A DNA stretch of 64,000 nucleotides from Halorarum salinum (GTDB lineage: Archaea; Halobacteriota; Halobacteria; Halobacteriales; Haloferacaceae), in assembly GCF_013402875.1 (NCBI RefSeq), contig NZ_CP058580.1, forward strand, positions 62,001-126,000. Reading direction: 5' to 3'. The notes beneath the pieces are model-generated. The model was not told the origin of the DNA. It ran no database searches and was given only the letters and a program-made list of their open reading frames with translations. This document shows positions 7,396-30,447 of the stretch, in pieces; within the stretch, counting starts at the first letter, position 1; every line of letters begins with the position of its first letter. Made by a program: the position numbers and the translations under genes.

Positions 7396-7879
7396 CGTCG
7401 GGACCCGTGACGGGGATGGTGCGTTCGCGCCGGGGCGACGGCTCCCCGCCCGCCGACTCGTTCCGGACCGACGGGTGGTACTCGCCGCGGACGCTGGAGG
7501 CGCCGTCCGGGATGAGGCGCTCGCGGACCCAGGCGAACGCCGGTTCGTCGCTCGGCGGCGTGAACAGCGCGCACCATCCCCGGGGGTGGATGGCCTCGCC
7601 GCCGAACCCGTCGTCGGGTCGGCCGACGACGTGGCACCGTCCGGACTCCCCGGGCCCGCCCTCCTCCCAGAACTGACACCGTCCACACTGGGGGCGCCAC
7701 AGCAGCGGCGGGAACGGCGACTGCGGCAGGTAGCGAGCGCTTCGCTTGTCGAACTTCCCGTTCGGCAGGTCGTGGGCCGCGTCGTGGACCCGCTCCGCGA
7801 CGGCGTCCACGCCGCGGTCGCCGTAGCGGAGGTAGTTCCACAGGAGCGCCGACGCGTGCGAGAGGGTCGAAGGTTGCAT
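7385..7879 (-). CDS. Stand-alone four-cysteine HiPIP-like protein
   Basis: A 164-residue protein closely resembling the N-terminal domain of the next gene: both share 'GKF.KR', a segment with C-x2-C-x13-C-x20-C (Cys65, 68, 82, 103), and 'VRGEYHPS' at the end. The last part, 'IHPRGWCALF', fits the C-terminal signature of high-potential iron-sulphur proteins (hydrophobic-x3-G-W-C-x2-F). The spacing before the last cysteine is longer than in classical HiPIPs. No signal peptide is seen. The stop lies 11 bases inside the next gene, so the two are probably co-expressed. Binding of an iron-sulphur cluster is inferred from the cysteines only. Confidence 0.8.
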   Translation of the reverse strand: MQPSTLSHASALLWNYLRYGDRGVDAVAERVHDAAHDLPNGKFDKRSARYLPQSPFPPLLWRPQCGRCQFWEEGGPGESGRCHVVGRPDDGFGGEAIHPRGWCALFTPPSDEPAFAWVRERLIPDGASSVRGEYHPSVRNESAGGEPSPRRERTIPVTGPDDDG

Positions 7880-8004
7880 CTCCGCTCCCCTGGACGGCGG
7901 CGCCGGCCAAGTACCTGCGGCCGTCCATTGCAGGGGGCCGTGGCCGTCCGTCGCGGGGTCGACGCCCCCGCCGTCGGGCCGGCCGGAGACGCGCGGCCGG
8001 ACGC

Positions 8005-8451: not shown

Positions 8452-9660
8452 ATGAACGACGAGGGAGGCGGACGGGCGGTCGCGGGCCACCGCGTCGGCT
8501 GGTGGGCGTTCGTCCTCGCGCTCGGGGCCGTCGCGGCGTACATCGCCCACTCGCTGATCGGCCTGCTGGTGCTGGGCGTCTTCGGTTACTACGCCACCCG
8601 GCCGATCTGTCGACGCCTCGCAGGGGTCGTCGACTCGGACGCGCTCGCGGCCGGCGCGACCGTGCTGCTCGTCCTGGTTCCGATCCTGTTCGTCGGCTTC
8701 TACGCAGGGTTCCAGATCGTCCAGCAGGCCGGGCAGTTCCTCGGCGGAACCCCGGCCTCGCTCCCGCTCCCCGGGGGGATCGACCTCGACGCGATCCCCG
8801 CAGACAGCCGACGGGCCGCCGAGTCCGCGATCCGGAACCCCGGGCAGTTCCTCTCGAACCCGCGGGAGACGACGCGGTCGGTGGTCGAACTCGGCCTCGC
8901 CGCGCTCTCGGCGCTCGTCGGGGCACTCCTGCTCGCCTCGCTCGCGGTCACGCTCTCGTACTTCCTGCTGGCGAACGACGACGCGCTCGCGGAGGGGCTC
9001 CGCCGGCTGTTCGGCGGACGGGACACCGCGGCCTACGCCTACGCGACGGCGGTCGACGAGGACCTGGAGTCGGTCTTCTTCGGCAACCTCCTGTTCGTCC
9101 TCGCCATGACCCTCGTAGCGGCGGCGACCTACTGGGGGACGAACCTCGTCGCGCCGGAGGGGCTCCGGGTTCCGATGCCGTTCGTCCTGGCGTTCCTCAC
9201 CGGCGTCGCCAGCCTCGTCCCCCTCGTCGTCGGCAAGGTCGTCTACGTCCCGGTCGTCGCCTACCTGGGGGTCCGGGCGTACCTGCTCGACGGGAGTCAG
9301 GCCGTCTTCGTCGGCGGCCTGCTCGTCGTCTACTTCCTCCTGCTGGACGTCCTCCCGCAGACGTTCCTGCAGCCGGTCATCACGGGTCGGACGATCGACA
9401 AGATGCTGCTGCTGTTCGCGTACCTGCTCGGGCCGGTGCTGTTCGGCTGGTACGGCTTCTTCCTCCTCCCGATCCTGTTCGTCCTGATGCTCGAGACGGT
9501 TCGCATCGTCCTGCCCGAACTCGTCCACGGCGAACCGCTCACGCCGACGGCGTCGATGGGCGAGTCCGCCGGGGCCGACCCCGAACCGCCGGAGCGGTCG
9601 GAGCCTCCGGACGGCGCCGACGGGGCGGCCGAGGACGGGGCCGAGCCCGATTCCGAGTAG
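8452..9660 (+). CDS. AI-2E family transporter (YdiK/PerM-like permease)
   Basis: A 402-residue membrane protein with about seven to eight helices. The large extracytoplasmic loop with 'FLGGTPASLPLPGGIDLDAIPADSRR' and the later 'GVASLVPLVVGKVVYVPVV' and 'LQPVITGRTIDKMLLLFAYLLGPVLFGWYGFFLLPIL' segments are characteristic of the AI-2E/UPF0118 exporter family. Residues after about 360 form an acidic hydrophilic tail. The ATG fits the start of the first helix after a short polar N-terminus. Members have been linked to export of small molecules or to Na+/H+ exchange; the substrate here is unknown. It stands alone. Confidence 0.88.
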   Translation: MNDEGGGRAVAGHRVGWWAFVLALGAVAAYIAHSLIGLLVLGVFGYYATRPICRRLAGVVDSDALAAGATVLLVLVPILFVGFYAGFQIVQQAGQFLGGTPASLPLPGGIDLDAIPADSRRAAESAIRNPGQFLSNPRETTRSVVELGLAALSALVGALLLASLAVTLSYFLLANDDALAEGLRRLFGGRDTAAYAYATAVDEDLESVFFGNLLFVLAMTLVAAATYWGTNLVAPEGLRVPMPFVLAFLTGVASLVPLVVGKVVYVPVVAYLGVRAYLLDGSQAVFVGGLLVVYFLLLDVLPQTFLQPVITGRTIDKMLLLFAYLLGPVLFGWYGFFLLPILFVLMLETVRIVLPELVHGEPLTPTASMGESAGADPEPPERSEPPDGADGAAEDGAEPDSE

Positions 9661-9717
9661 CGGCGGGCCGGACGGGGAGCGTCCCGTCGGGTCGCGTAGG
9701 TTCCCCTGCCCCCCGTC

Positions 9718-11559
9718 TCACTCCTCGGGCGTCTCGGTTTCCGTCTCGGTCTCGGTTTCCGTCTCCGTCCCGTCCTCCTCGGGGGTCCCGGCCGGGGTCC
9801 CGTCGCCGCTCGGCGTCCCGCCCTCCCCGGGCGGGACGAGCCTGACGACGCGGCCGGTGTCGCCCTGCGGGACGCCCTCCTCGTTGACGAGGACGTACAG
9901 CTCCCCGTCGTTGTCGCGGCCGAACATGCGGACGAAGTACTCGAAGTCCTCCGGGAGCACGAGCTCCTCCATCTCCCACAGTCGCTCGCGCGGCACTTCG
10001 CCCTCGTCGGCGCTCCCGGGGGTTCTGGTCACGTCGCCGCCGGGGGTGGTCTTGCCCGGCGGCGTCTCCGTCCCGTCGCCGGGCGTGGCGCCCATGCCGT
10101 CCTCCGGGGTGCCGTCCATCCCGGCGCCGCCGGTCGGCGTGCCGGGCGTCGCGTCACCGCCCCCGGGCGTCGTCGCGGCGCCACCCTCGCCGAAGTCCTC
10201 GGGGGGCGTCGCGGCGAGGACGCGACCCTGGGGCTCGCTCCGCCGGGGGTCCCTCGTCCACTCGCCGAACACGTACTTCCCCTCGAGGTCCGGGATCGTG
10301 TCGTTCTCGTACCGGTGGCCGCCGACGATGACGATGCCCTCGAACTCGCCCTGGTAGACGTGCGGGTACTCGACGATCGGGTCCCGCAACGGGGCGCCGT
10401 CGTACGGCGGCTCGTCGGGCGCCGTGTCGGGGCACTGGGCGTTGGGGTCGACCTGGCTCGGGTTCTCCGTGCTGAAACAGTGGGTGCCCTCCTTCACGTT
10501 CCAGCCGTAGTTGCCGCCCGCCTCGACGACGTTCGCCTCCTCCCAGAGGTCCTGGCCGGCGTCGGCGACGAACAGGTTCCCCTCGCCGTCGAAGGAGATG
10601 CCGAAGGGGTTGCGGAACCCGTACGCGTAGATCTCGTCCAGCCCGGGGTTGTCCGCCCCGGCGAACGGGTTGTCCTCCGGGATGCCGTAGTTCGCCCCGC
10701 CGTCCCCGTCGCCGCCGTCGACGTCGATGCGGACGACGTCGCCGAGCAGGTTCGACTCGACGTCCTGGCCGTTGCCGCCCCCGTTGGCGTCGTACCAGTC
10801 GTCGACGTGGCCGAGCATGTCGTCGTTGGCGCCGCCGCCGTCGCCCATCGGGATGTAGAGGTAGCCGTCCGGCCCGAACGCGATCGGACCGGCGTCGTGG
10901 TTGTACTGCGGAGACGGGAAGGTGATGATCTGGGTCTCGCTCTCCGGGTCCCCGCTCCCGAGGTCGTCGTCCGCCTGGAACTCCGAGACGACCTCGATGT
11001 GGTCCCAGTTCATCTCCTGCAGTTCGTCGCTCGGCGGCGCGCTGTAGTGGAGGTAGAAGCGGCCGTTCTCCTGGAAGTCTGGGTGGAACTCAACGCCGAG
11101 CAGGCCACGCTCGTCGTAGTCGCCGCTCCGGTCGGCGTACTGCCCGAAGAACTCCCCCAGGGTGATCATCCGGTCGCTCACGTCGATGAACGGCTCCTCC
11201 TGGCGTCCCTCGTCGGGGGTGACGACCCACAGTTCCCCCGTCTGGTCCGCCACGAAGTACCGCTCCTCGTCCTCGTCGGCCACCGCGAAGTCGGTCGGCG
11301 CCGTCATCCCCTCGGCGACGACCTCGTAGCCGACTTCGGCGCCCGGTTCGAAGAAGCCCGTCCCCTGCTGTGCCGACGCGCTCGCCCCCCCGAACGGCGC
11401 CAGGTCGCCCGACGACGCGATGCCGGCGCCGACCCCGGTCGCCGCCGCCGCGCCGAGCACGCGTCGCCGCGACGTCGTCCACCTCCCGCCGTCGTCCTCG
11501 TCCGTGTACTCGTCCGCCCGTTCCTCGGACCGGTCGCTGGGTTGGCTGTCACTTGGCAT
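9718..11559 (-). CDS. Tat-exported PQQ-dependent sugar dehydrogenase-like protein
   Basis: A 613-residue paralogue of the propeller domain encoded at 5545-7395. After an acidic leader, 'TSRRRVLGAAAATGVGAG' is a clear Tat signal, so the enzyme works outside the cytoplasm. The propeller carries 'DERGLLGVEFHPDF', 'NHDAGPIAFGPDGYLYIPMGDGGG', 'NYGIPEDNPF' and 'GFRNPFGISFD'. Between propeller blades sits a glycine/threonine/proline insert of about 70 residues, and the protein ends in a glutamate/threonine run ('TETETETETETPEE'). It probably oxidises an aldose or related compound with PQQ; cofactor and substrate are inferred. The start chosen is the ATG giving a standard pre-Tat leader; 14 further residues upstream are open. 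Confidence 0.88.
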   Translation of the reverse strand: MPSDSQPSDRSEERADEYTDEDDGGRWTTSRRRVLGAAAATGVGAGIASSGDLAPFGGASASAQQGTGFFEPGAEVGYEVVAEGMTAPTDFAVADEDEERYFVADQTGELWVVTPDEGRQEEPFIDVSDRMITLGEFFGQYADRSGDYDERGLLGVEFHPDFQENGRFYLHYSAPPSDELQEMNWDHIEVVSEFQADDDLGSGDPESETQIITFPSPQYNHDAGPIAFGPDGYLYIPMGDGGGANDDMLGHVDDWYDANGGGNGQDVESNLLGDVVRIDVDGGDGDGGANYGIPEDNPFAGADNPGLDEIYAYGFRNPFGISFDGEGNLFVADAGQDLWEEANVVEAGGNYGWNVKEGTHCFSTENPSQVDPNAQCPDTAPDEPPYDGAPLRDPIVEYPHVYQGEFEGIVIVGGHRYENDTIPDLEGKYVFGEWTRDPRRSEPQGRVLAATPPEDFGEGGAATTPGGGDATPGTPTGGAGMDGTPEDGMGATPGDGTETPPGKTTPGGDVTRTPGSADEGEVPRERLWEMEELVLPEDFEYFVRMFGRDNDGELYVLVNEEGVPQGDTGRVVRLVPPGEGGTPSGDGTPAGTPEEDGTETETETETETETPEE

Positions 11560-11586
11560 GACGGCATCGTGGGTCGTCCACGCCTG

Positions 11587-11600
11587 GTTTAAAAAATACA
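11587..11600 (-). promoter_or_regulatory. TATA box of the exported dehydrogenase gene
   Basis: On the minus strand this reads 'TGTATTTTTTAAAC', centred about 32 bases before the ATG. It is the most AT-rich stretch in the intergenic region and fits an archaeal promoter with a leaderless or very short leader. Confidence 0.55.
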
Positions 11601-11602
11601 CA

Positions 11603-12000
11603 CGTTCGTTCAGTTTTCATCGGTATGGCGTAACGAAGCGTTTCAAATCGCGCTAGTAACGAAACGACCCCTTACGCACCGCCCGGTCGGCCTCGCCGCC
11701 CTGTCAGCCGGGGTTCGCTTACTCGCTCGAGTGGCCGGACCTACTCCCGCTAGCGCTGGAGTACGTCCACGAACGTCGCCCGTCACGGCGGCGAACCGCC
11801 GAAACGGGCCCGTCCGGAGCGCGCCACGCGACTACACGACGACGGGGCCAGCCGCGCCCGCCGGCCGTCTCGGCTCGAACGCGCCGGCCCCTCGTCGCTC
11901 CCCGCGTCGGTCGCTACGGCGGAAGCCGAATCGTGCGGCCGGGGGTCGTCCCCCGATTCCGGTGGAAACCGACATACGACGCGCCTAGTCCGGCATATTC
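11603..12000. other. Intergenic stretch without a supported gene
   Basis: About 400 bases of GC-rich DNA between two divergent promoters. The short open frame on the plus strand has no recognisable features and looks like noise. The right end has an AT-rich 'GGCATATTCAA' at 11992-12002, a possible upstream element for the halocyanin gene. Confidence 0.5.
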
Positions 12001-12042
12001 AACCCGAGTTATCTTCCCCCCACTCGTCGAATCCTGTCGCGT

Positions 12043-12669
12043 ATGAACCGACGAACCCTGTTACGACGGACCAGCGTGGCCGGAATCGGCATCGCGGCGC
12101 TCGCCGGCTGCTCCTCACCGGACGGCGGCGACGGGACGGAGCCCGCAGTGGATACTGAGACGGAAGAGGAGGAGGACGGCGAGGAGACGGAGACGGAGAT
12201 GGGCGAGGAGACGGAAGCCGGAGCGGGTGAGGGGACCGAGACGGAGATGGGCGAGGAGACGGAAGCCGGAGCGGGTGAGGGGACCGAGACGGAGATGGGC
12301 GAGGAGACCGGAACGGCGGAAGGAACGGACGCGGCAGGCGGCGCCGGCGGGGGCGGCAACGCGTACGAGTTCAACGGCGTGACCGAGGCGTGGATGGGCG
12401 TCTCCCCGTCCGAGATCGAGGGCGAGGAGAACCCGACGCTCCAGCTCACGGCGGGCGAGGAGTACGAGGTGACCTGGACGAACGGGGACGGGGTGGCCCA
12501 CGACTTCACCATCCAGGACTCGGACGGGAACAACCTGGAACAGACCGACCTGATCTCCGAGGAGGGCCAGTCGGCGACGCTCACGTTCACCGCCTCCGAG
12601 GAGATGACCACGTACATCTGTACGGTCCACCCGAACACGATGGTCGGCGACCTCGAAGTGAGTGCGTAG
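12043..12669 (+). CDS. Halocyanin-like blue copper lipoprotein
   Basis: A 208-residue cupredoxin. The N-terminus 'NRRTLLRRTSVAGIGIAALAGCSS' region combines a twin-arginine motif with a lipobox, so the mature protein should be anchored outside the membrane. Residues about 30-105 are an acidic linker containing a tandemly repeated 16-residue block. The C-terminal ~100 residues are the copper domain, with the first histidine ligand in 'VAHDFTI' and the remaining Cys-His-Met ligands in 'YICTVHPNTM'. It would shuttle electrons as a membrane-bound plastocyanin analogue; its partners are unknown, though the Tat-exported dehydrogenase next door is divergent from it. Confidence 0.93.
   Translation: MNRRTLLRRTSVAGIGIAALAGCSSPDGGDGTEPAVDTETEEEEDGEETETEMGEETEAGAGEGTETEMGEETEAGAGEGTETEMGEETGTAEGTDAAGGAGGGGNAYEFNGVTEAWMGVSPSEIEGEENPTLQLTAGEEYEVTWTNGDGVAHDFTIQDSDGNNLEQTDLISEEGQSATLTFTASEEMTTYICTVHPNTMVGDLEVSA
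12190..12308 (+). repeat. 48-bp in-frame tandem repeat in the halocyanin linker
   Basis: Two exact 48-base copies (12190-12237 and 12238-12285) and the first ~23 bases of a third. Each encodes the 16 residues ETEMGEETEAGAGEGT. Perfect identity at the DNA level indicates recent slippage or recombination. Confidence 0.95.
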
Positions 12670-21373: not shown

Positions 21374-22246
21374 CTACCCCGACGCGGCGCCTTCGTCACC
21401 GCCGACCGGAACGCCGGCGAGCCAGCGGAGGAGCCGTACGACCGCTTCGGGATCGTGGACGCGAACCGAGGCGGCCGTGTCGGCCCGGTCGCCGACGAGG
21501 ACCGCGACCCCCGTCGGCCGGAGTTCGTCGAAGGCGTCCTCGTCGGTGACGTCGTCGCCGACGAACAGCGTGCGGTACGCCGGGTGTCGGTCCCGGAGCA
21601 GACGCACCGCCCTGTCCTTCCCGCCCTCGACGTCGGGCCGGAGCTCGAACACGCGCTTGCCCCGGGTGAGTCGGAGCCCGTCGGCCGCCGCGACGGCGGC
21701 CGTCACCGCCTCCTCGACCGTCCCGACGTGCTCCTCGGGCGTTCGCCGGTAGTGGACCGACGCGGTGAGCCCCTTGTCCTCCACGAGGCTGCCCGGGACG
21801 TCGGCCAGCTCCGAGCGGAGCTCCGTGACCGCCGCCGCGACCGCCGGACGGATCCCCTCCACCTCCGGGTCGACCGCCCCCGTTCGATCGGCCGCGCCGG
21901 CCTCCTCCCCTCCGGCCTCGCACTCCTCCCCGCCCACGACGTCGAGTTCGAGCCCGTGGTTCCCGGCGAGGTGGACGCCGGGGACGTCGACGCGCTCGCG
22001 GAGGTCGGCGAGCGACCGCCCGCTCACGACCGCGACCTCGACCGAGGGACGGTCGACGAGCCGCACGAGCGCGTCGCGAGCCCCGGAGGACAGCTCCGCG
22101 GCCGCCGGGTCCTCCACGATGGGCGCGAGCGTCCCGTCGAAGTCGAGACAGACGAGCAGGCCCGGCGCGCCGGCTACCCGGTCGCGGAGCGCCGGGAACG
22201 GCTCCTCGAGCAGCGGCGGGGGGTCGCGGTCCGACTCCCCCGACAT
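21374..22246 (-). CDS. otsB: Trehalose-6-phosphate phosphatase
   Basis: A 290-residue HAD-superfamily phosphatase. Motif I is 'CLDFDGTLAPI' with the nucleophilic aspartate, followed by 'VVSGRSLADLRERV', 'LAGNHGLEL' and the metal-binding 'FVGDDVTDEDAFDEL'. These are the landmarks of the OtsB family, which removes phosphate from trehalose-6-phosphate. The gene lies one base downstream of the synthase, so the pair forms an operon making trehalose, a compatible solute in haloarchaea. A glutamate/glycine-rich insert near residue 105 may be a lineage-specific loop. Confidence 0.93.
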   Translation of the reverse strand: MSGESDRDPPPLLEEPFPALRDRVAGAPGLLVCLDFDGTLAPIVEDPAAAELSSGARDALVRLVDRPSVEVAVVSGRSLADLRERVDVPGVHLAGNHGLELDVVGGEECEAGGEEAGAADRTGAVDPEVEGIRPAVAAAVTELRSELADVPGSLVEDKGLTASVHYRRTPEEHVGTVEEAVTAAVAAADGLRLTRGKRVFELRPDVEGGKDRAVRLLRDRHPAYRTLFVGDDVTDEDAFDELRPTGVAVLVGDRADTAASVRVHDPEAVVRLLRWLAGVPVGGDEGAASG

Positions 22247-22247
22247 C

Positions 22248-23765
22248 TCAGGGGGCCTCGCGGCGCGTCTCGCGGACGGTTCCGGCCGTCTCCAACACGT
22301 CGTCGAGCCAGTGGGCCAGGTCCCCGTCGTGGACCCGGTGGCGGAGCGCCCGCATCCGGGAGCGGCGCTCCCACTCGTCCATCGCGAGCGCCCGCTCGAT
22401 GGCCTCGGCCCCGGCGACGGGGTCGTACGGGTCGAGTTCGACCGCGCCCTCGCCCAGCTCCTCGTAGGCGCCTGCCAGGCGGCTGAGCAGGAGCACGCCG
22501 TCGTCCTCGACCTGGGCGGCGACGTACTCCTTGGCGACGAGGTTCATCCCGTCGCGCAGGGGGCTGACGAGCCCCAGGTCGCTGTGCCGGTAGAGCGAGC
22601 AGAGGTCCGGGTAGTCGAACATCTCGGTCGTGTACACGACCGGCTGCCAGTCGTCGGTCCCGTACCGCTCGTTGAGGCGGTCGACGGCGTCCTCGACCTC
22701 CGCCCGGAGCTCCTGGTAGGCGGGGATCCGCTCGCGCGTCTCGCTGGCCTTCTGGACGTAGGTGAACTCCCCCCGGAGGTCGGGGCGGCGCTCGAAGAGG
22801 TGTTCGAGCATCTCCAGCCGCGGGGGAATCCCCTTCGTGTAGTCGAGCCGGTCGACGCCGAGCGCGACCGTGACGTCCTCGTCGATGCCGTGAGCGTGGC
22901 GGAAGCGGGTCCAGAACACCCCGTCGTCCTCGGCGTGCTGCCGGATCTCGTCGGCGTCGACGCCGAGCGGGAACGCGCGGACCGTCGTGACCCCGCCGTC
23001 GTAGTGGACCTCGCCGCCCGTCCAGTCGACGGTCGCGCCGTCGAGGTGTTCGTCCACGCACTCCATGAACCGGGCGCCGTACCGCGGGAGGTGGAACCCC
23101 AACAGGTCGTTGCCGAGCAGCCCCTCGAGGAGCGCCGACCGCTGCGGGCAGATGGCGAACACGTCCGGGGCGGGCCAGGGGATGTGGTAGAACTGCATCA
23201 GGAACGCGTCGGGTTCGCGGGCCCGCACCAGTCGCGGGGCGAGCGCGAAGTGGTAGTCCTGAAACCAGACGGTCCCCCCCGACTCGGCGTGGTCGACGAC
23301 GGCGTCGGCGAACCGCTCGTTCACCTCGCGGTAGCGCTCCCAGTGCTCCGCCTCGAACCGCACCCGGCAGGTGTCCGTGTGACAGAGCGGCCACAGCGCC
23401 TGGTTCGCGTAGCCGTCGTAGTAGCCCCGGACCTGCGACTCCGAGAGCGACACGCGCTGGAGGGTGTACTCGGGGTCCTCGGGCGGGACCGTGACGCGGT
23501 CGTCCTCGTCCGCGACCGCGAAGTCGGCGTCCCCGTCCCCCCACGCGACCCACGTCCCGTCGAGCCGCTGCATCACCGGGTCCAGCCCCGCGGTGAGCCC
23601 CCCCGTCGGACAGTCGACGGCGATCTCCTCCCGGTCCCCCCCGTCGTCGCGCTCGTACCGGTGCCGGTAGGGCTGCCGGTTCGAGACGAGGACGAGGTCC
23701 TCGCCCACCCCGTACTCCGCCGGTCGCTGTTCGTCGGACGACCCCGATTCCGAGTTCGCTGTCAT
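22248..23765 (-). CDS. otsA: Trehalose-6-phosphate synthase
   Basis: A 505-residue GT20 glycosyltransferase. It has 'LVLVSNRQPY' and 'CPTGGLTAGLDPVMQRLDGTWVAWGD' at the N-terminus, 'WFQDYHFALAPRLVR' and 'FYHIPWPAPDVFAICPQR' in the acceptor domain, and 'VDRLDYTKGIPPRLEMLEHL' plus 'SPLRDGMNLVAKEYVAAQ' in the nucleotide-sugar domain. It joins glucose from a nucleotide sugar to glucose-6-phosphate. The start is the ATG just before the SNRQPY motif; the frame is open far upstream but antisense to the isomerase gene. It precedes otsB and follows the ebo-like genes on the same strand. Confidence 0.94.
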   Translation of the reverse strand: MTANSESGSSDEQRPAEYGVGEDLVLVSNRQPYRHRYERDDGGDREEIAVDCPTGGLTAGLDPVMQRLDGTWVAWGDGDADFAVADEDDRVTVPPEDPEYTLQRVSLSESQVRGYYDGYANQALWPLCHTDTCRVRFEAEHWERYREVNERFADAVVDHAESGGTVWFQDYHFALAPRLVRAREPDAFLMQFYHIPWPAPDVFAICPQRSALLEGLLGNDLLGFHLPRYGARFMECVDEHLDGATVDWTGGEVHYDGGVTTVRAFPLGVDADEIRQHAEDDGVFWTRFRHAHGIDEDVTVALGVDRLDYTKGIPPRLEMLEHLFERRPDLRGEFTYVQKASETRERIPAYQELRAEVEDAVDRLNERYGTDDWQPVVYTTEMFDYPDLCSLYRHSDLGLVSPLRDGMNLVAKEYVAAQVEDDGVLLLSRLAGAYEELGEGAVELDPYDPVAGAEAIERALAMDEWERRSRMRALRHRVHDGDLAHWLDDVLETAGTVRETRREAP

Positions 23766-23896: not shown

Positions 23897-24745
23897 TCAG
23901 ACGTACTCGGAGAGCGCCTCGTGGGCCTCCCGGGCCGCCCGGTCCGGCTCGTCGGGATACGTGTACAGCTCCAGGGTGGCGAACCCGTCGTAGCCGACGT
24001 CGTCCAGCGCGTCGAAGACGGCCGCGAAGTCGAGGTCGCCCTCCCCGGGGATTCGGTGGTAGTGTTTCCCCCGGCGGCCGCCGACGATGTCCTCCAGGTG
24101 GACGCCCGTGACGTGCCCGCCACAGCGCCGGATCGCCTCGGCGGGATCCTCGCCGTACACCGCCGCGTGCCCGACGTCGAGGTTGACGCCCAGCGAGTCG
24201 CGGCCCACGTCGTCGATCAGCGCCAGCACCTCGTCGGTGCACTCGACCAGCAGTTCGGGTTCGTACTCGATGCCGACGTCCACGCCGGCGTCCTCGGCGT
24301 AGTCGAGGATCTCGCCGAGCGACTCCCGGAGGTACTCGCGTGCCCGCTCGGGCGGGTTCCCGGGGAGCGGGCGTCCCGTCGCGAGACAGACCGCCGGCGC
24401 GTCGGTCGCGGCCGCGAGGTCGACGGCGCGCTTCGTGTACTCGACGCGCCACGCCCGGTCGTCCGCGTCGGCGGTGATCACGCTCGGGTCGAAGAACGAC
24501 GACGGCGGCGCGTCGTCGTAGTAGCCCGTCGCCGTGTTCGCGTTGACGTTCGAGACGGAGAGGCCCGTCTCGCGGAGCGCCTCCAGCGCGTCGTTCCGGT
24601 CGCTCTCGTCGAACCACGGGAAGAAGGCGTGGGGCACGTCCCCGAGCAGTTCGACGCCGGCGTAGCCGTGGCGCGCGACGCGGCGGATCGCCTCGGGGAG
24701 CGGGAACTCGGTGTACGCGTTGGTGGAGAACGCCAGTTTCGTCAT
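23897..24745 (-). CDS. Sugar phosphate isomerase/epimerase, EboE-like (copy 1)
   Basis: A 282-residue xylose-isomerase-like TIM barrel. It starts 'KLAFSTNAYTEFPLPEAIRRVARHGYAGVELLGD', and the metal-binding residues appear in 'VGIEYEPELLVEC', 'GVNLDVGHAAVYGED', 'GVHLEDI' and 'FATLELYTYPDEP'. It is clearly related to the gene at 25808-26683. The start is the ATG at the beginning of the barrel; nine more codons upstream are open. It lies 88 bases after the UbiA gene on the same strand and belongs to the ebo-like cluster. Substrate unknown. Confidence 0.88.
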   Translation of the reverse strand: MTKLAFSTNAYTEFPLPEAIRRVARHGYAGVELLGDVPHAFFPWFDESDRNDALEALRETGLSVSNVNANTATGYYDDAPPSSFFDPSVITADADDRAWRVEYTKRAVDLAAATDAPAVCLATGRPLPGNPPERAREYLRESLGEILDYAEDAGVDVGIEYEPELLVECTDEVLALIDDVGRDSLGVNLDVGHAAVYGEDPAEAIRRCGGHVTGVHLEDIVGGRRGKHYHRIPGEGDLDFAAVFDALDDVGYDGFATLELYTYPDEPDRAAREAHEALSEYV

Positions 24746-24833
24746 GTCACCACCTTCGGGGGCCGTCGCCAAGAAACCCGGACCGGACGGCGGCGGAGGG
24801 TCCGGCCCGCCGGCGCGAACTGTGGTTCCGGCG

Positions 24834-25817
24834 TCACGTCACGTCGAACACCCGCGAGAGGCCCACCGCCGGGACCAGGAAGCCGAGCGTCACGAGCGCC
24901 CAGCCGACCCCCGCGGTCGCCGCGAAGGCGGCGTCGAGGACGACCAGCCCCAGGACGCAACTCCCGACCGCGGGGCCGACGGTCCCCGGAACCGGGTCGG
25001 CGTACGCCCGGCGCAGCGGCCGCCCGACGGCCACGAGGAAGGCGGCGGCGAGCAGCGCCGCGAGGCCGGTTCGAGCGGCCGGGGCTCCGGCGGCGACGGC
25101 GACGAGGAGCGCGGCCGTCGCCGCCAGCGCCGCACCCGTCGCGGCGACCGCCACGAGTCGGCGATCCCCCCCGACCGTCTCCGTCTCGGCCATCGCGGTC
25201 ACGCCGGCGATGTACAGCGCGACGGCGACGGGAGCGGCGACGAGCGGCGCCGGGAGGCCGGCGACCGCTGGGGTCGCGCCGGCCGCGCCGAACTCCGAGG
25301 CGGCTCCGGGGACCCCGACCGCCGCCGCGCCCAGCGCGACGTTGAGCCCCCGCGCCGCGCCCATGGTCGGCGGGCCGGCCGACCCGTCCTTCAGCGCGCC
25401 GTCGTACGACAGGACGACCGCGACGAGCAGGCCCGCGACGACCGCCGCGGCGACGCCCGCGAGCAGGGCGACGAGCACCCCGGCCGCTAGCGAGGCCATG
25501 CCGAGCCCGAACGCCGTGGAGCGCTCGACCCGACCGGACGGGATGGGGCGCTCGGGGCGCTCGACGGCGTCCCGCGGCGCGTCGAAGTAGTCGTTGAGCG
25601 CCGTCCCCGCGGCGTAGACGAACGTCGAGGCGACGGCCGCCGCGGCGACGTCCGCGAGCGTCCCCGACGCGGGTCCCCCGGTCGCCCCCGCCGCGACGGC
25701 CAGCGCCGCGCCGGCCAGCACGTCCGGCGGGGCGGTGAAGACGTTCGGCACCCGGACCAGCGCCGCGTAGTCCGCGGGCGAACCGGTCAGCCGGGCCGTC
25801 GCCACGCTCAGGCCCAC
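24834..25817 (-). CDS. UbiA-family prenyltransferase, EboC-like
   Basis: A 327-residue membrane protein with eight or nine helices. The first aspartate-rich motif, 'NDYFDAPRDAVERPERPIPSG', and the second, 'YDGALKDGSAGPPTMGAARGLN', identify a UbiA-type prenyltransferase. The second motif and the neighbours (TatD-like, TIM-barrel, phosphatase) match the EboC subgroup. It would transfer a polyprenyl chain to a small polar acceptor, creating a membrane-bound product. Its start overlaps the preceding isomerase stop by ten bases. The product's identity is unknown. Confidence 0.9.
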   Translation of the reverse strand: MGLSVATARLTGSPADYAALVRVPNVFTAPPDVLAGAALAVAAGATGGPASGTLADVAAAAVASTFVYAAGTALNDYFDAPRDAVERPERPIPSGRVERSTAFGLGMASLAAGVLVALLAGVAAAVVAGLLVAVVLSYDGALKDGSAGPPTMGAARGLNVALGAAAVGVPGAASEFGAAGATPAVAGLPAPLVAAPVAVALYIAGVTAMAETETVGGDRRLVAVAATGAALAATAALLVAVAAGAPAARTGLAALLAAAFLVAVGRPLRRAYADPVPGTVGPAVGSCVLGLVVLDAAFAATAGVGWALVTLGFLVPAVGLSRVFDVT

Positions 25818-26683
25818 CCGCGTTCGCGCAGGTACGCCATCGCCTCCCGGGCCGTCTCGGGGGCCGTGTCGCCGTACGGGTACAGTTCGACGGTGACGAA
25901 CCCGTCGTAGCCGCTGTCCTCGACGGCCGTCAGGAACCCCTCGATGTCCATCCCGCCCTCCCCGAGCTGGGTGTGCTCGTGGGTCCGGTCGGCCGGGATG
26001 TCCTCCAGGTGGTAGTGGCGGGTGTGGGGTTCGAGCGTCTCGACCAGCTCCGCGGGGTCCTCGCCCACGCAGAAGAAGTGGCCGGCGTCGAAGTTGCAGC
26101 CGACCCGCGGGGAGTCGACGCGCTCCATCAGGTCGAGGAACTCGGCGGAGCTCTCGACCAGCAGGTCGGGCTCCGGTTCGACGAGCACGTCGACGCCGAC
26201 GGCCTCGGCCCGCTCGGCGACCGTCCTGAGCCCCTCGACGAACTGGTCGGTCGCCTCCTCGTCGGACGTGCCGACGGGAACGGGCCCCCCCGGAGGCACC
26301 GAGACGTGCGGCGCGCCGAGCGCCGCCGCCGTCTCCAGGGCGGCCTCGGTGTGCTCAACCCGCGTCCGGCGGTCGGCCGCGTCGGGTTCGACGAACGAGG
26401 GGTGGTGGAACGCCTCCGTCTCGCGGCCGTACTCCGCGTCCCTGCTCCGCTCGCCCGGCTCCACGGCGCTGAGCATGAACGCGTTACAGTTGCTGACCGC
26501 GAGGCCGCGCTCGTCGAGCAGGCCCAGCACGTGCTCGACGGCCGCCTCGTCCGCCTCGGCCGGGTAGAGGTGCGGGTCGTCGAGCAGTATCTCGATGCCG
26601 TCGTAGCCGGCGTCCGCGACGGCGTCGATCGCCTCCGCGAGCGCGTGCTCCCGGAACGCGTTGCTGGAGAAGCCGAACCGCAT
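25808..26683 (-). CDS. Sugar phosphate isomerase/epimerase, EboE-like (copy 2)
   Basis: A 291-residue TIM barrel of the xylose-isomerase-like family. Landmarks are 'RFGFSSNAFREHALAEAIDAVADAGYDGIEIL', 'VSNCNAFM', 'VDVLVEPEPDLLVESS', 'GCNFDAGHFFCVGED', 'HYHLEDIPADRTHEH' and 'FVTVELYPYGD'. It shares layout and many motifs with the copy at 23897-24745, so the cluster carries two paralogues. It starts two bases after the TatD-like gene stop and ends inside the UbiA gene start, so these three are one operon. The substrate is probably a phosphorylated sugar or cyclitol; this is inference. Confidence 0.9.
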   Translation of the reverse strand: MRFGFSSNAFREHALAEAIDAVADAGYDGIEILLDDPHLYPAEADEAAVEHVLGLLDERGLAVSNCNAFMLSAVEPGERSRDAEYGRETEAFHHPSFVEPDAADRRTRVEHTEAALETAAALGAPHVSVPPGGPVPVGTSDEEATDQFVEGLRTVAERAEAVGVDVLVEPEPDLLVESSAEFLDLMERVDSPRVGCNFDAGHFFCVGEDPAELVETLEPHTRHYHLEDIPADRTHEHTQLGEGGMDIEGFLTAVEDSGYDGFVTVELYPYGDTAPETAREAMAYLRERGWA

Positions 26684-26685
26684 CG

Positions 26686-27486
26686 TCACGGCTCGTACGC
26701 GAAGTTCGGCGACTGGCTGAAGAACTCGTAGGGGTTCTCGAACACGACCTTCCGCACCTCCTCGCGGTCCCAGCCCCGGTCGAGCATCCGGTCGCGCGCC
26801 TTCGGCACCGCGAGCGGGTCCGAGGGGTCCCAGTCGGCCGCGCTGTTGAACAGCATCCGGTCGGTGCCGTACTCCTCCAGCAGGTCGATGGCCGCCGACG
26901 CCTCGATCTTCCCGGGGTAGAGCGTGAAGCCGATCCAGCAGTCCGTCTCGACGGACGTGTCGATGGTGTTCTCCGTGTTGTGGTCGATGACGATGCGCTC
27001 CTGGGTGACGCCCTCGTCCTCGATCATCTCGACGATGCGCTCGGTCCCCGCGGGCTTGTTCGTGTGGGGCGTGTGGACGATGACGGGGAGTTCGCGCTCC
27101 TCGGCCATGTTCAGCTGGCGCCGGAAGGCGTCGCGCTCGTCCTGGGTGTCCTGGTCGAGGCCGATCTCGCCGACGCCGACGACGTTCTCGCGGTCCAGAT
27201 ACTCGGGCAGGCGGTCCATGACCTCCTCGGCCATCTCGGGGTAGTTCGCCTCCTTCGGCTCGAGGCCGAGGGTGACGTAGTGGTCGACGCCGGCGGTCCG
27301 CTCGGCGCGCTCGGTCTCGAAGTCGGTGATCTGCTCGAAGTAGTCGAAGAACGACCCGGCGTGCCGTTTGTCCGTCCCGCTCCAGAACGCAGGCTCGATG
27401 CAGCACTCGATGCCGGCGCGCCGGGCCCGCTCGTAGTCGTCGCTCGAACGGGAGACCATGTGCATGTGAGGGTCGATGATCCGCAT
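26686..27486 (-). CDS. TatD-family metal-dependent hydrolase, EboB-like
   Basis: A 266-residue amidohydrolase-superfamily TIM barrel. The metal site is seen as 'DPHMHM' at residues 5-10, then 'GVGEIGLDQDTQDE', 'VIVHTPHTNKP', 'IVIDHNTENT' and 'LFNSAADWDPSDPLAVPKA'. The last motif and the neighbours point to EboB rather than the DNase TatD. It leads the operon EboB, EboE, EboC on the minus strand. The start is the ATG just before the HxH motif; the frame stays open upstream without features. The reaction it catalyses is not known for any Ebo protein I can name. Confidence 0.88.
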   Translation of the reverse strand: MRIIDPHMHMVSRSSDDYERARRAGIECCIEPAFWSGTDKRHAGSFFDYFEQITDFETERAERTAGVDHYVTLGLEPKEANYPEMAEEVMDRLPEYLDRENVVGVGEIGLDQDTQDERDAFRRQLNMAEERELPVIVHTPHTNKPAGTERIVEMIEDEGVTQERIVIDHNTENTIDTSVETDCWIGFTLYPGKIEASAAIDLLEEYGTDRMLFNSAADWDPSDPLAVPKARDRMLDRGWDREEVRKVVFENPYEFFSQSPNFAYEP

Positions 27487-27785
27487 GGGTTCACTATCGA
27501 CCACGGACGGTATGTCCCCTCGCCCGAGCGTCGAAAGGATTTGAAAAGCTACCTGACGCGACCCGCTCCGCGAATCGCGCGGCGGTGGCCCCGTCGCGCC
27601 GGCGACACCTGAATATGCAAGGCGAAACCACATCTCGCCCGGTTCACATATCACGACGTCAGGATGTACCCGAACGCCGGTAGCACGGACTCGCGGCGGG
27701 GGGCCGAGCGCCCCGCCGCGAGTCCACCGAGTCGCGACGCCAGCCGGGACGCGGGCCGGCCAGTAGACCGCCACACGCCGCCGAC
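27487..27785. other. Divergent control region of the ebo-like cluster
   Basis: A 299-base region between the minus-strand EboB operon and the plus-strand cyclitol-synthase-like operon. It has AT-rich spots at 27535-27550 ('AAAGGATTTGAAAAGCTACC') and 27610-27618 ('TGAATATGC') and 'TTCACATATCACG' near 27642-27654. Both operons probably start here. No RNA gene is evident. Confidence 0.5.
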
Positions 27786-28985
27786 ATGATCGGCGTCTGG
27801 CTCGTCGGCGCGTACGGCAACGTTGCGACGACGGCGGTCGTCGGCGCCCGCGCGGTCGCTCGCGGTCTCGCGGACACGACCGGGATGGTGACCGCCCGGC
27901 GGCCGTGCACCCGCCTCGACCTCCCGGCGGTCGGGGACCTCGCGTTCGCCGGCCACGACGTGCGGGACACCTCCCTCCTCGAGACGGCCCACGAACTGTC
28001 GGCCGGCGGGGTCCCATCGGCCGACGTGGTCGACGCGGTCGCCGACGACCTCGAGCGGATCGACGACGGGGTCCGCGTCGGCACCGCGGTCAACTGCGGG
28101 CGGGCGGTGGCCGACCTCGCTGACGAGACGCTCTCGGCCCCCGAGATCGGCGACGTCGTGGCGGGGATCCGCGACGACTACCGGTCGTTCGTCGACGGGC
28201 GGGACCTCGACCGACTCGTCGTCGTCAACGTCGCCTCGACGGAGCCGGGGGTCGAGCGCCCCGAGCGGTACGACACGCTCGACGCGTTCGAGCGGGCCGT
28301 CGAGACGAACGACCGGGACCTCCCGGCGAGCTCCCTCTACGCCTACGCCGCGCTCCGCGAGGGGCACCCGTACGTCAACTTCACGCCGAGCACGGGGGCG
28401 GCGCTGGGCGGGCTGTGCGAACTCGCCGAGCGGAAGGACCTCCCCAACGTCGGCCGGGACGCGAAGACCGGCGAGACGCTGCTGAAGTCCGCGCTCGCGC
28501 CGATGTTCGCCCGCCGGAACCTGCGGGTGCGCTCGTGGGAGGGGCACAACATCCTCGGCAACGACGACGGGCTGGTGCTGGAGGAGGAGGAGAACAAGGC
28601 CGGGAAGCTGGCGAGCAAGGGCGGCGTGCTGGAGGGCATCCTCCCCGACATCGAGCACAACCGCGTCCGCATCGACTACGCCCCGCCGCTGGGCGACTGG
28701 AAGACCGCCTGGGACGACGTCCGGTTCGACGGCTTCCTCGACACGCGGATGAAGCTCCAGTTCACCTGGGAGGGGTCGGACTCGGCGCTGGCGGCGCCGC
28801 TCGTGCTCGACCTCGTCCGGCTGGTCTCCCACGCCGACGAGTACGGCGAGGGCGGGTTCCAGCCCCAGCTCGCGTCGTTCTTCAAGGCCCCGCTGGGCGT
28901 CGACGAGCACGACTTCTCGCGGCAGTTCGACCTGCTCGAGCGCTACGTGGACCACCACGCGGGGGAGGTCGCCGGCGATGGCTGA
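27786..28985 (+). CDS. Inositol-3-phosphate synthase-like protein
   Basis: A 399-residue INO1-family enzyme. The NAD-binding loop is 'GVWLVGAYGNVATTAVVG'; further landmarks are 'FTPSTG', 'GRDAKTGETLLKSALAPMFARRNLRV', 'SWEGHNILGNDDGLVL' and a C-terminal dimer region ending in 'FFKAPLG'. The classical reaction converts glucose-6-phosphate to myo-inositol-3-phosphate. Here it sits in an ebo-like cluster, where other organisms carry EboD of the dehydroquinate-synthase type; both families cyclise a sugar phosphate using NAD. It overlaps the next gene by eight bases. The exact substrate could differ from glucose-6-phosphate. Confidence 0.9.
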   Translation: MIGVWLVGAYGNVATTAVVGARAVARGLADTTGMVTARRPCTRLDLPAVGDLAFAGHDVRDTSLLETAHELSAGGVPSADVVDAVADDLERIDDGVRVGTAVNCGRAVADLADETLSAPEIGDVVAGIRDDYRSFVDGRDLDRLVVVNVASTEPGVERPERYDTLDAFERAVETNDRDLPASSLYAYAALREGHPYVNFTPSTGAALGGLCELAERKDLPNVGRDAKTGETLLKSALAPMFARRNLRVRSWEGHNILGNDDGLVLEEEENKAGKLASKGGVLEGILPDIEHNRVRIDYAPPLGDWKTAWDDVRFDGFLDTRMKLQFTWEGSDSALAAPLVLDLVRLVSHADEYGEGGFQPQLASFFKAPLGVDEHDFSRQFDLLERYVDHHAGEVAGDG

Positions 28986-30447
28986 GCCGCCGGGGGCGGC
29001 CGGGGGACCCGGTTCGTCGGAGACGTCCGAACCGACGGCCGGCCGCGTCGTCGTCCTCGACGTCGTGGGGCTCCAGCCGGAGCACGTCTCCGCCGACCGG
29101 ACGCCGGAACTCGACGCGGCGCTCGAGGAGGTGATCCCGTCCGAACCGGCGTTCCCGGCGCTGACCGTGCCCGCGCAGACGACGCTCGCGACCGGCCGGT
29201 CCCCCGCCGAGCACGGCGACGTCTCGAGCGGCGAGTACGACCGCGAGCGCGACGCGGCGGCGTTCTGGGAGCGCGACCGTGGCGGCCGCGACCGGATCTG
29301 GGAGACCGCCCGAGAGGCCGGGCTGACCACGGGCGCCCTGTTCTTCCAGCACCTGATCGGCACGGACGCCGACGTCGCGGTGACGCCCTCGCCGATCGAG
29401 GACGAGGACAACAACATGCTGGAGATGAACTGCTGGACCAACCCGGACGGCCTCTACGACGACCTCCGGGCGGAGTACGGCCACTTCCCGCTGCACAACT
29501 ACTGGGGCCCGACCGCGAACGAGGAGAGCAGCCGCTGGATCCTCTCGGCCGCGAGCGAGGCGGTCGAGCGGTTCGACCCCGACCTGCTCTGGGTGTACGT
29601 CCCCCACCTCGACTACGCCGGCCTGCGGCACGGCCCCGGCCCCGAACTGGAGGCGGAACTCCCGGTCGTCGACGAACTCGTCGGCGGGTTCCTCGCGACG
29701 CTCCGGGGCGACGACCGCTGGGACGAGACGGCCGTCGCGGTCGTCGGCGAGTACGGCTTCCACGGGGTCGACACGCCCGTCCTGCCGAACGTGGCCCTGC
29801 GCGAGGCGGGGCTCCTGGAAACGGAGTCGGCGGACGGCGGGTCCGCGGGGAGCACCGAGGTCGACCTCCCCGGCTCGGACGCCTTCGCGATGGTCGACCA
29901 CCAGGTGGCCCACGTCTACGCCGACGGCGACGCCGTCGAGGAGGCCCGCGAACTCCTCGCGTCGCTCGACGGGGTGGACGTCGTGCTCGACGGGGGCGGG
30001 TCCGGCGGCCCCGACAAGGCGGCGTACGGGGTCGACCACCCGAACGCCGGCGACCTCGTGCTCGTCGCGGAGCCGTCGGCGTGGTTCGCCTACTACTGGT
30101 GGACCGACCGCGCGGAGGCGCCGCCGTACGCGGCGGAGATGGACATCCACGCCAAGCCGGGGTTCGACCCCTGCGAACTGTTCCTCGGCGAGGAGGGGCT
30201 CGTGTCGCTGGACCCGTCGAAGGTGGGCGGCTCGCACGGGCGGACCGACCCGGGGACGTACCCCGCGTTCGGCCTCGGCGGGCCGGCGGTCTCGGGGGTC
30301 GAGCTCGGCGAGGGGACGGGATCGGAGGGGGCGGTCGACGCCCGCGCCATCGCGCCGACGATCGCCGCCCTGCTCGGCGTCGCGGACGCCGTCGACGCCG
30401 AGGTGCCGCCGCTCGTGGGCGACGAGACGGAGGGGTCGCGCGGGTGA
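28978..30447 (+). CDS. Alkaline-phosphatase-superfamily hydrolase, EboF-like
   Basis: A 489-residue nucleotide pyrophosphatase/phosphodiesterase-type enzyme. It starts 'VVVLDVVGLQPEHVSADRTPEL', then 'FPALTVPAQTTLATGRSPAEHG', where a threonine in the 'TVPAQTT' segment is the likely nucleophile. Metal ligands appear in 'YVPHLDYAGLRHG', 'VGEYGFHGV' and 'GGSHGRTDPGTYP'. No signal peptide is present. It would hydrolyse a phosphomonoester or diester, perhaps the polar product of the synthase encoded upstream. Start codon overlaps the synthase stop. Assignment to EboF is by superfamily and context. Confidence 0.88.
   Translation: MAEPPGAAGGPGSSETSEPTAGRVVVLDVVGLQPEHVSADRTPELDAALEEVIPSEPAFPALTVPAQTTLATGRSPAEHGDVSSGEYDRERDAAAFWERDRGGRDRIWETAREAGLTTGALFFQHLIGTDADVAVTPSPIEDEDNNMLEMNCWTNPDGLYDDLRAEYGHFPLHNYWGPTANEESSRWILSAASEAVERFDPDLLWVYVPHLDYAGLRHGPGPELEAELPVVDELVGGFLATLRGDDRWDETAVAVVGEYGFHGVDTPVLPNVALREAGLLETESADGGSAGSTEVDLPGSDAFAMVDHQVAHVYADGDAVEEARELLASLDGVDVVLDGGGSGGPDKAAYGVDHPNAGDLVLVAEPSAWFAYYWWTDRAEAPPYAAEMDIHAKPGFDPCELFLGEEGLVSLDPSKVGGSHGRTDPGTYPAFGLGGPAVSGVELGEGTGSEGAVDARAIAPTIAALLGVADAVDAEVPPLVGDETEGSRG

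What the first reader, a model, noticed from the sequence alone, without database searches (positions are those of the whole stretch)
23897..30447. An ebo-like gene cluster with an inositol-phosphate-synthase-like enzyme, beside trehalose genes
Seen: a minus-strand operon of TatD-like hydrolase, TIM-barrel isomerase and UbiA prenyltransferase, a second isomerase paralogue, and divergently an INO1-type synthase overlapping an alkaline-phosphatase-superfamily gene. Known: the ebo cluster of cyanobacteria and some other bacteria has EboB (TatD), EboC (UbiA), EboD (dehydroquinate-synthase-like), EboE (isomerase-like TIM barrel) and EboF (phosphatase superfamily), and has been linked to moving a precursor across a membrane. 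Inference: this is an archaeal version in which INO1 takes the place of EboD as the NAD-dependent sugar-phosphate cyclase, with EboA missing, so the cluster may build a prenyl-linked cyclitol. Two EboE paralogues suggest an extra step.
Basis: partly seen in the sequence, partly recalled or inferred. Interest (0 to 1): 0.85.

Follow-up and report, generated by a model that had tools for sequence, protein, structure and literature searches.

The report
Archaeal ebo-like cluster using inositol synthase
Salt-loving archaea share a patchily distributed six-gene cluster, related to the bacterial ebo cluster of unknown product, in which an inositol-making enzyme replaces the usual ring-forming enzyme, so the unknown product is probably a prenylated sugar-alcohol lipid that can now be traced with labelled inositol.

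Summary
In detail: TatD, isomerase E2, UbiA and isomerase E1 form one operon, with INO1 and a phosphodiesterase-superfamily gene divergent and overlapping. It is a conserved unit: in 292 Halobacteria genomes the UbiA gene occurs in 38, and INO1 in the same 38 plus one; of 37 loci, 35 hold all four of TatD/E2/UbiA/E1 and 32 have INO1 nearby. TatD, UbiA and the phosphodiesterase are closest to bacterial EboB, EboC and EboF. EboD, EboA and true EboE are not found. The INO1 swap is not an archaeal invention: Actinomycetota and Gemmatimonadota ebo clusters carry INO1 plus a TIM-barrel isomerase ('iso') where other bacteria carry EboD (7 against 7 loci, never mixed). E1 and E2 are relatives of iso, not EboE. 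Haloarchaeal INO1 is sister to actinobacterial ebo INO1. Catalytic residues are conserved. Best reading: an INO1-type ebo variant making an inositol-derived polyprenyl-cyclitol; the product is inferred. Trehalose neighbours are incidental (0/37). Some carriers lack INO1, so the cyclitol source may vary.

The parts
23897..24745 (-). E1: xylose-isomerase-like TIM-barrel (PF01261), metal-ligand pattern E160/D190/H193/E259 intact
   Evidence: Pfam 154 bits; paralogue of E2 at 41% and closest outside haloarchaea to the Streptomyces 'iso' protein, 31-33%; conserved residues
24834..25817 (-). EboC-like UbiA-superfamily prenyltransferase, motif NDxxDxxxD (N75 D76 D79 D83), K143, R156
   Evidence: NCBIfam EboC 177.6 bits and SCO3242_trans 169.8 bits, next model 69 bits; below the curated cut-offs of 250/260; AlphaFold model pLDDT 89, nearest fold DGGGP synthase
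25808..26683 (-). E2: xylose-isomerase-like TIM-barrel (PF01261), ATG start 2 nt after the TatD stop (an alternative GTG start lies at 26689)
   Evidence: Pfam 161 bits; groups with the bacterial 'iso' of INO1-type ebo clusters; model pLDDT 92.5
26686..27486 (-). EboB-like TatD/amidohydrolase-superfamily protein; H7 H9 E107 H141 H169 D218 invariant
   Evidence: 41-46% identity to annotated EboB of bacterial ebo loci against about 27% to other haloarchaeal TatD; conserved residues
27487..27785 (.). 299-bp divergent intergenic region between the two transcription units
   Evidence: sequence
27786..28985 (+). INO1-type myo-inositol-phosphate synthase; K274 K278 K306 K367 N255 in the numbering of A. 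fulgidus INO1, all conserved
   Evidence: Pfam PF07994 + PF01658; phmmer 289 bits to PDB 1u1i; conservation
28978..30447 (+). EboF-like alkaline-phosphatase-superfamily phosphodiesterase (PF01663)
   Evidence: 33-43% identity to annotated EboF proteins; overlaps INO1 by 8 nt and stays paired with it in two genomes where the pair lies away from the other four genes

Best explanation
This is an INO1-type relative of the ebo cluster, shared with Actinomycetota and Gemmatimonadota and held patchily by haloarchaea. Shown: gene content, linkage, kinship to EboB/EboC/EboF, absence of EboA/EboD/true EboE, and intact active-site residues. Inferred mechanism: INO1 cyclises glucose-6-phosphate to myo-inositol phosphate with NAD, the cyclitol-forming step that EboD is thought to perform elsewhere; EboF, coupled to INO1, removes the phosphate that INO1 (unlike a sugar-phosphate cyclase) leaves on the ring; the metal-dependent TIM barrels E1 and E2 isomerise, epimerise or dehydrate the ring; EboC transfers a polyprenyl chain (in haloarchaea probably geranylgeranyl) onto it in the membrane; EboB hydrolyses an intermediate. 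The product would be a membrane polyprenyl-cyclitol.
For: Conserved six-gene linkage. UbiA and INO1 occur in the same 38 genomes of 292, INO1 alone in one; Fisher 5e-47, not corrected for phylogeny. In 145 Halobacteria any INO1 (PF01658) occurs only in cluster-bearing genomes. The INO1+iso against EboD split is clean in 14 bacterial loci. Haloarchaeal INO1 is sister to actinobacterial ebo INO1 (96/95 support), apart from Archaeoglobus-type and other archaeal INO1. INO1 catalytic lysines and N255 intact. EboC's nearest solved structure is DGGGP synthase, which O-prenylates a polyol phosphate. INO1 and EboF lie together in 31 of 32 INO1-bearing loci and remain a pair in two genomes where they are far from the other genes. 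E1/E2 resemble sugar epimerases, IolI and AsbF.
Against: Four haloarchaea (Haladaptatus pallidirubidus, Halomicroarcula rubra, Haloarcula pellucida, one MAG) carry the other genes without any detectable INO1, so INO1 is not obligatory or inositol comes from elsewhere. The only in vitro activity found for an EboC homologue is farnesylation of quinolines (PMC9235831), though the assays described used aromatic acceptors. EboF also occurs where EboD is used and leaves no phosphate. EboB and EboF trees do not place haloarchaea inside the actinobacterial clade. No metabolite is known.
Confidence: 0.6

Rival explanations
1. The cyclitol is converted to an aromatic or quinone-like acceptor before prenylation: E1 and E2 act as inosose/dehydroshikimate-dehydratase-like enzymes that aromatise the inositol ring, and EboC C-prenylates the aromatic product.
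For: EboC homologues farnesylate 8-hydroxyquinoline-2-carboxylate and quinaldic acid in vitro (PMC9235831). E1/E2 show weak profile or fold similarity to IolE, QuiC and AsbF, enzymes that dehydrate cyclitols.
Against: The same similarity extends to ordinary sugar epimerases, often more strongly. EboC's nearest solved structures by sequence and fold are DGGGP synthases, O-prenyltransferases. Aromatisation from inositol would need an oxidation for which no dehydrogenase is constantly linked.
Confidence: 0.2
2. It is an inositol or sugar catabolic island: the TIM barrels are inosose isomerases, and TatD and the phosphodiesterase are generic hydrolases, with the prenyltransferase as a passenger.
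For: PF01261 enzymes are typical of inositol and ketose catabolism. Neighbourhoods often contain sugar transporters, Gfo/Idh dehydrogenases and GSDH-type sugar dehydrogenases.
Against: UbiA directly follows E2 and TatD as a fixed core gene (36 of 37 loci). TatD, UbiA and the phosphodiesterase are specifically EboB/C/F-like. INO1 makes inositol rather than degrading it. The catabolic neighbours vary and the core does not.
Confidence: 0.08
3. The genes serve an inositol-containing polar lipid or surface glycan of haloarchaea rather than an ebo-type product.
For: INO1 copies outside the cluster (Halomarina, and the chromosome of this genome) lie in glycosyltransferase or polysaccharide regions, so inositol glycans may exist.
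Against: Those INO1 copies form a derived subclade inside the cluster INO1s. Clusters in Streptomyces with the same enzymes keep EboA and EboE, pointing to an ebo product. No CDP-alcohol transferase or glycosyltransferase is among the constant genes.
Confidence: 0.1

Closest known systems
Canonical ebo operon (eboABCDEF; eustigmatophyte plastids, Bacteroidota, Cyanobacteriota; PMC5133447, PMC6282210)
   Same: EboB-, EboC- and EboF-like genes in one cluster; a cyclitol-forming enzyme beside a UbiA prenyltransferase, a TatD-like hydrolase and a phosphodiesterase-superfamily protein
   Different: No EboA, no EboD (INO1 instead), no true EboE; two PF01261 barrels of another subfamily; two divergent transcription units; archaeal host
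Actinobacterial INO1-type ebo cluster (SCO3242-family prenyltransferase loci, e.g. Streptomyces sp. NBC_00663, L071)
   Same: INO1 of the sister clade (44-46% identity), a UbiA prenyltransferase of the SCO3242 family, an iso-type TIM barrel, EboB and EboF
   Different: The actinobacterial version keeps EboA and EboE and has one iso gene; the haloarchaeal one lacks EboA and EboE and has two iso-like genes
Gemmatirosa kalamazoonensis plasmid cluster (L135)
   Same: INO1, iso, EboB, EboC, EboF; no detectable EboA
   Different: Has a true EboE; its INO1 lies outside the actinobacterial-haloarchaeal pair in the tree
Archaeal DGGGP synthase (PDB 6m31, 7bpu)
   Same: UbiA fold; polyprenyl transfer; nearest solved structures to the cluster's UbiA by sequence and fold
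   Different: 18% identity; dedicated to membrane glycerolipids; not in an INO1/EboB/EboF cluster
Archaeoglobus fulgidus INO1 (PDB 1u1i)
   Same: Same enzyme family, same catalytic lysines and asparagine in the same numbering
   Different: Separate clade in the INO1 tree

Membership tests
Canonical ebo operon | EboB (TatD-like hydrolase) | tested here: met
   41-46% identity to annotated EboB, about 27% to other TatD; metal-site residues conserved
Canonical ebo operon | EboC (UbiA-like prenyltransferase) | tested here: inconclusive
   Best NCBIfam model is EboC (177.6 bits), then SCO3242_trans (169.8), both below the curated cut-offs 250/260; next model 69 bits
Canonical ebo operon | EboF (PF01663 phosphodiesterase-like) | tested here: met
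   33-43% identity to annotated EboF proteins, clear gap to other PF01663 proteins
Canonical ebo operon | EboD (sugar phosphate cyclase, PF01761) | tested here: not met
   No PF01761 match in the whole genome; the family rings in 11 of 14 control genomes; no EboD-like ORF in 37 loci
Canonical ebo operon | EboA | tested here: not met
   NF035938: 0 of 39 genomes, 6 of 6 bacterial controls; own EboA profile finds nothing in 37 loci
Canonical ebo operon | EboE (NF035939, about 380 aa) | tested here: not met
   Best haloarchaeal scores 25-31 bits, mostly on E1/E2 themselves, against 404-470 bits in controls and a cut-off of 250; E1/E2 separate from EboE by a very long branch
Canonical ebo operon | Needed for export of a precursor / accumulation phenotype | not testable with these tools
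   Known only for Nostoc scytonemin (PMC6282210)
INO1-type (actinobacterial) ebo cluster | INO1 + iso-type PF01261 barrel + EboB + EboC + EboF, EboD absent | tested here: met
   7 of 7 bacterial INO1-type loci and the haloarchaeal clusters; 0 of 7 EboD-type loci have INO1 or iso; INO1 sister clades
INO1-type (actinobacterial) ebo cluster | EboA and EboE present | tested here: not met
   Present in Streptomyces, Nonomuraea and Embleya (EboA missing in Gemmatirosa); absent in haloarchaea
Myo-inositol-1-phosphate synthase (INO1) | Catalytic K274, K278, K306, K367, N255 (A. fulgidus numbering) | tested here: met
   All conserved in 18 cluster INO1s
UbiA superfamily prenyltransferase | Asp-rich NDxxDxxxD motif and membrane helices | tested here: met
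   N75 D76 D79 D83 invariant in 22 sequences; all-helical model, UbiA fold; second motif Y138/D139/K143 conserved

The most novel reading that the evidence does not exclude
The INO1-type cluster makes an undescribed polyprenyl-cyclitol (or a cyclitol-derived quinone-like lipid) that works as a membrane cofactor or carrier for extracytoplasmic oxidative chemistry. Haloarchaeal copies sit near GSDH-type sugar dehydrogenases, often with a blue-copper domain, in 18 of 37 loci (about 0.7 expected), and some bacterial copies lie near ScyD/E-like propellers, PQQ dehydrogenases or multicopper oxidases. EboD and INO1 would be interchangeable entry enzymes for one lipid class across two domains of life.
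Probability: 0.12. Interest if true: 0.85.

Novelty: new variant of a known kind. Interest (0 to 1): 0.6.

Why it matters
The product of the widespread ebo cluster is unknown, and it has been treated as bacterial/plastid with EboD as the ring-forming enzyme. An archaeal version whose ring former belongs to an enzyme family of known reaction (INO1) narrows the product: its ring should derive from inositol, which can be fed labelled. The mutual exclusion of INO1+iso and EboD suggests two entry routes into one pathway. Haloferax species among the carriers make deletion genetics realistic. I found no description of the INO1-type or archaeal cluster in the open-access papers searched, although automatic annotation already labels parts of it.

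Tried and rejected
Trehalose link: otsA/otsB beside none of 37 other copies, rejected. E1/E2 as EboE paralogues: rejected by profile and tree. Independent archaeal recruitment of INO1: not favoured, since haloarchaeal INO1 is sister to actinobacterial ebo INO1 rather than to other archaeal INO1. EboG as a stand-in for EboA: the Deinococcus EboG sequence finds nothing in the haloarchaeal loci and there is no room between the core genes, but EboG is poorly conserved. INO1-EboF pairs on short contigs of G209 (L128, L129) were not counted as separated, because both clusters of that genome run into contig ends. Ketogulonicigenium 'iso' (L075) proved an unrelated long-branch PF01261 protein. Cluster outside Halobacteria within the phylum: none at E<=1e-40 in a 393-genome sample. 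UbiA searched against plasmids gave only partial matches to two haloarchaea, presumably because low-complexity filtering masks it. PHROGs: no hits. Conserved-neighbour clustering mostly returned shadow ORFs apart from the GSDH and FAA-hydrolase families.
Full report
WHAT IS THERE. The window lies on the smaller, 239-kb contig of a two-contig, 4.26-Mb haloarchaeal genome. Four minus-strand genes run TatD (26686-27486), E2 (25808-26683), UbiA (24834-25817), E1 (23897-24745). They are nearly continuous: E2's ATG is 2 nt after the TatD stop and UbiA's GTG overlaps E2. Divergently, INO1 (27786-28985) overlaps an alkaline-phosphatase-superfamily gene (28978-30447) by 8 nt. Pfam assignments are unambiguous.

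CONSERVATION. The UbiA orthologue was found in 38 of 292 Halobacteria genomes. In 37 loci of 12-20 kb centred on it, TatD, E2 and E1 are each present in 36 and all together in 35 (one of the two gaps is a contig end); INO1 is present in 32 and the phosphodiesterase in 31. Some of the missing INO1s are contig ends; in two genomes (G250, G256) an INO1-phosphodiesterase pair lies elsewhere in the genome (L126, L127). INO1 occurs in the same 38 genomes and one more (Fisher 5e-47, not phylogeny-corrected, but the carriers span 18 genera). A family-level INO1 search of 145 Halobacteria found INO1 only in carriers, whereas INO1 is common elsewhere in the phylum (165 of 295 sampled genomes). A scan of public genomes named many carriers: Halorussus, Halovenus, Halococcus, Halorubrum, Haladaptatus, Natrinema, Natrialba, Halopiger, Haloferax, Halostagnicola, Haloarcula, and the archaeon deposited as Actinarchaeum halophilum. 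Exceptions matter: Haladaptatus pallidirubidus, Halomicroarcula rubra, Haloarcula pellucida and one MAG carry the cluster but no INO1 at all.

RELATION TO EBO. TatD is 41-46% identical to annotated EboB proteins, and there is a gap to about 27% for other haloarchaeal TatD proteins. The phosphodiesterase is 33-43% identical to EboF with a similar gap. UbiA scores best against EboC (177.6 bits) and SCO3242-family (169.8 bits) models, next best 69 bits, but below both curated cut-offs. The DHQ-synthase family, to which EboD belongs, is absent from the genome. EboA is absent from 39 genomes (38 carriers and one INO1-only genome) although the same profile rings in 6 of 6 bacterial controls. The EboE profile gives 25-31 bits at best, mainly on E1/E2 themselves, against 404-470 in controls. 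Because these defining genes were tested and not found, this is not filed as a canonical ebo operon.

THE KEY COMPARISON. Streptomyces plasmid loci annotated with EboA and EboE carry, in order, inositol-3-phosphate synthase, SCO3242-family prenyltransferase, sugar phosphate isomerase, EboA, TatD, EboE, phosphodiesterase. Nonomuraea, Embleya, another Streptomyces and Gemmatirosa (Gemmatimonadota) have the same INO1+isomerase type. Across 14 bacterial loci, 7 have INO1+iso and no EboD, and 7 (Azospirillum, Ketogulonicigenium, Deinococcus, Aureibacter, Mycetohabitans, Salipiger, Roseivivax) have EboD and neither INO1 nor iso. INO1 therefore replaces EboD as a package with the isomerase, and not only in archaea. 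E1 and E2 are 41% identical to each other and 31-33% to the Streptomyces iso proteins; in a tree E2 groups with bacterial iso while EboE is separated by a very long branch (deep supports moderate). In INO1 trees the haloarchaeal clade is sister to the actinobacterial ebo INO1 (96/95), apart from Archaeoglobus-type, other archaeal and Gemmatirosa INO1. EboB and EboF trees put haloarchaea on a long separate branch and cannot give direction. Common ancestry of the INO1 type between actinobacteria and haloarchaea is likely; direction and number of transfers are open.

ACTIVE SITES. The catalytic residues of A. fulgidus INO1 (K274, K278, K306, K367, N255; the PDB set contains single-alanine variants at K278, K367 and N255, as the alignments show) are conserved at identical numbering in all 18 cluster INO1s. 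EboC's NDxxDxxxD motif, K143 and R156 are invariant across the haloarchaeal and bacterial EboC proteins compared; EboB's H7, H9, E107, H141, H169 and D218 are invariant; E1/E2/iso keep an E-D-H-E metal site (the assignment as metal ligands rests on family knowledge). The EboC model (pLDDT 89) is nearest to DGGGP synthase and archaeal UbiA structures. The E2 model (pLDDT 92.5) is nearest to ketose epimerases, IolI and AsbF, which does not fix its reaction. Six catalytically plausible enzymes are thus shown; their substrates are not.

HOW IT PROBABLY WORKS. The ebo product was proposed to be an isoprenoid-cyclitol (PMC5133447), with a role in moving a precursor to the periplasm in Nostoc (PMC6282210). 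Here the ring former belongs to a family of known reaction, so the ring is most likely inositol. INO1 leaves a phosphate on the ring, whereas a sugar phosphate cyclase releases it (PMC5133447); the tight INO1-EboF coupling in haloarchaea suggests that EboF removes it. That is inference, because EboF also accompanies EboD, and in Streptomyces EboF is not next to INO1. E1 and E2 would adjust the ring, EboC attach a polyprenyl chain, and EboB trim an intermediate. A rival is conversion to an aromatic acceptor, because EboC homologues farnesylate quinolines in vitro (PMC9235831); the assays described there used aromatic acceptors.

NEIGHBOURS. Trehalose genes are incidental (0 of 37). The window itself has two GSDH genes and a halocyanin-like gene about 11-18 kb away from E1. 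A second INO1 of this genome, and those of two Halomarina plasmids, form a derived subclade; the annotated one and that of this genome lie in glycosyltransferase or polysaccharide regions, suggesting later reuse of INO1.

VERDICT. The product remains inferred.

Noticed in passing
window 5548-8004(-), 9721-11616(-), 11989-12666(+): Two GSDH-type sugar dehydrogenases and a plastocyanin/halocyanin-like protein; the same family is strongly over-represented near the cluster in other haloarchaea (18 of 37 loci).
   Followed up: partly
L070 (G000 chromosome, about 8643-9869); L145, L146: A second INO1 outside the cluster in this genome and in Halomarina plasmids lies among glycosyltransferase or polysaccharide genes and forms a derived subclade of cluster INO1s.
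   Followed up: partly
L156, L176, L177, L179: Four haloarchaea have the cluster but no INO1 anywhere in the genome; the source of the cyclitol there is unexplained.
   Followed up: partly
L170/L132 (Halostagnicola sp. A-GB9-2): One genome has an intact INO1 and a second, fragmented INO1 beside TatD and E1, a cluster apparently in decay.
   Followed up: no
L066/L183 (deposited as Actinarchaeum halophilum): All six genes are co-directional, unlike the divergent arrangement in most haloarchaea.
   Followed up: no
L034:13396-14223 and matching ORFs in about nine loci: A fumarylacetoacetate-hydrolase-family gene lies near E1 in Natrialba/Natrinema-type loci.
   Followed up: no
window 21374-23760(-): otsB/otsA trehalose genes directly downstream of E1; not conserved beside other copies of the cluster.
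   Followed up: yes
window 28978-30447, EboF-like residues E258-Y259-G260: An invariant Glu-Tyr-Gly in all 24 EboF-like proteins compared may sit where related phosphodiesterases carry an Asp-His metal motif (position judged from memory, not aligned here).
   Followed up: no
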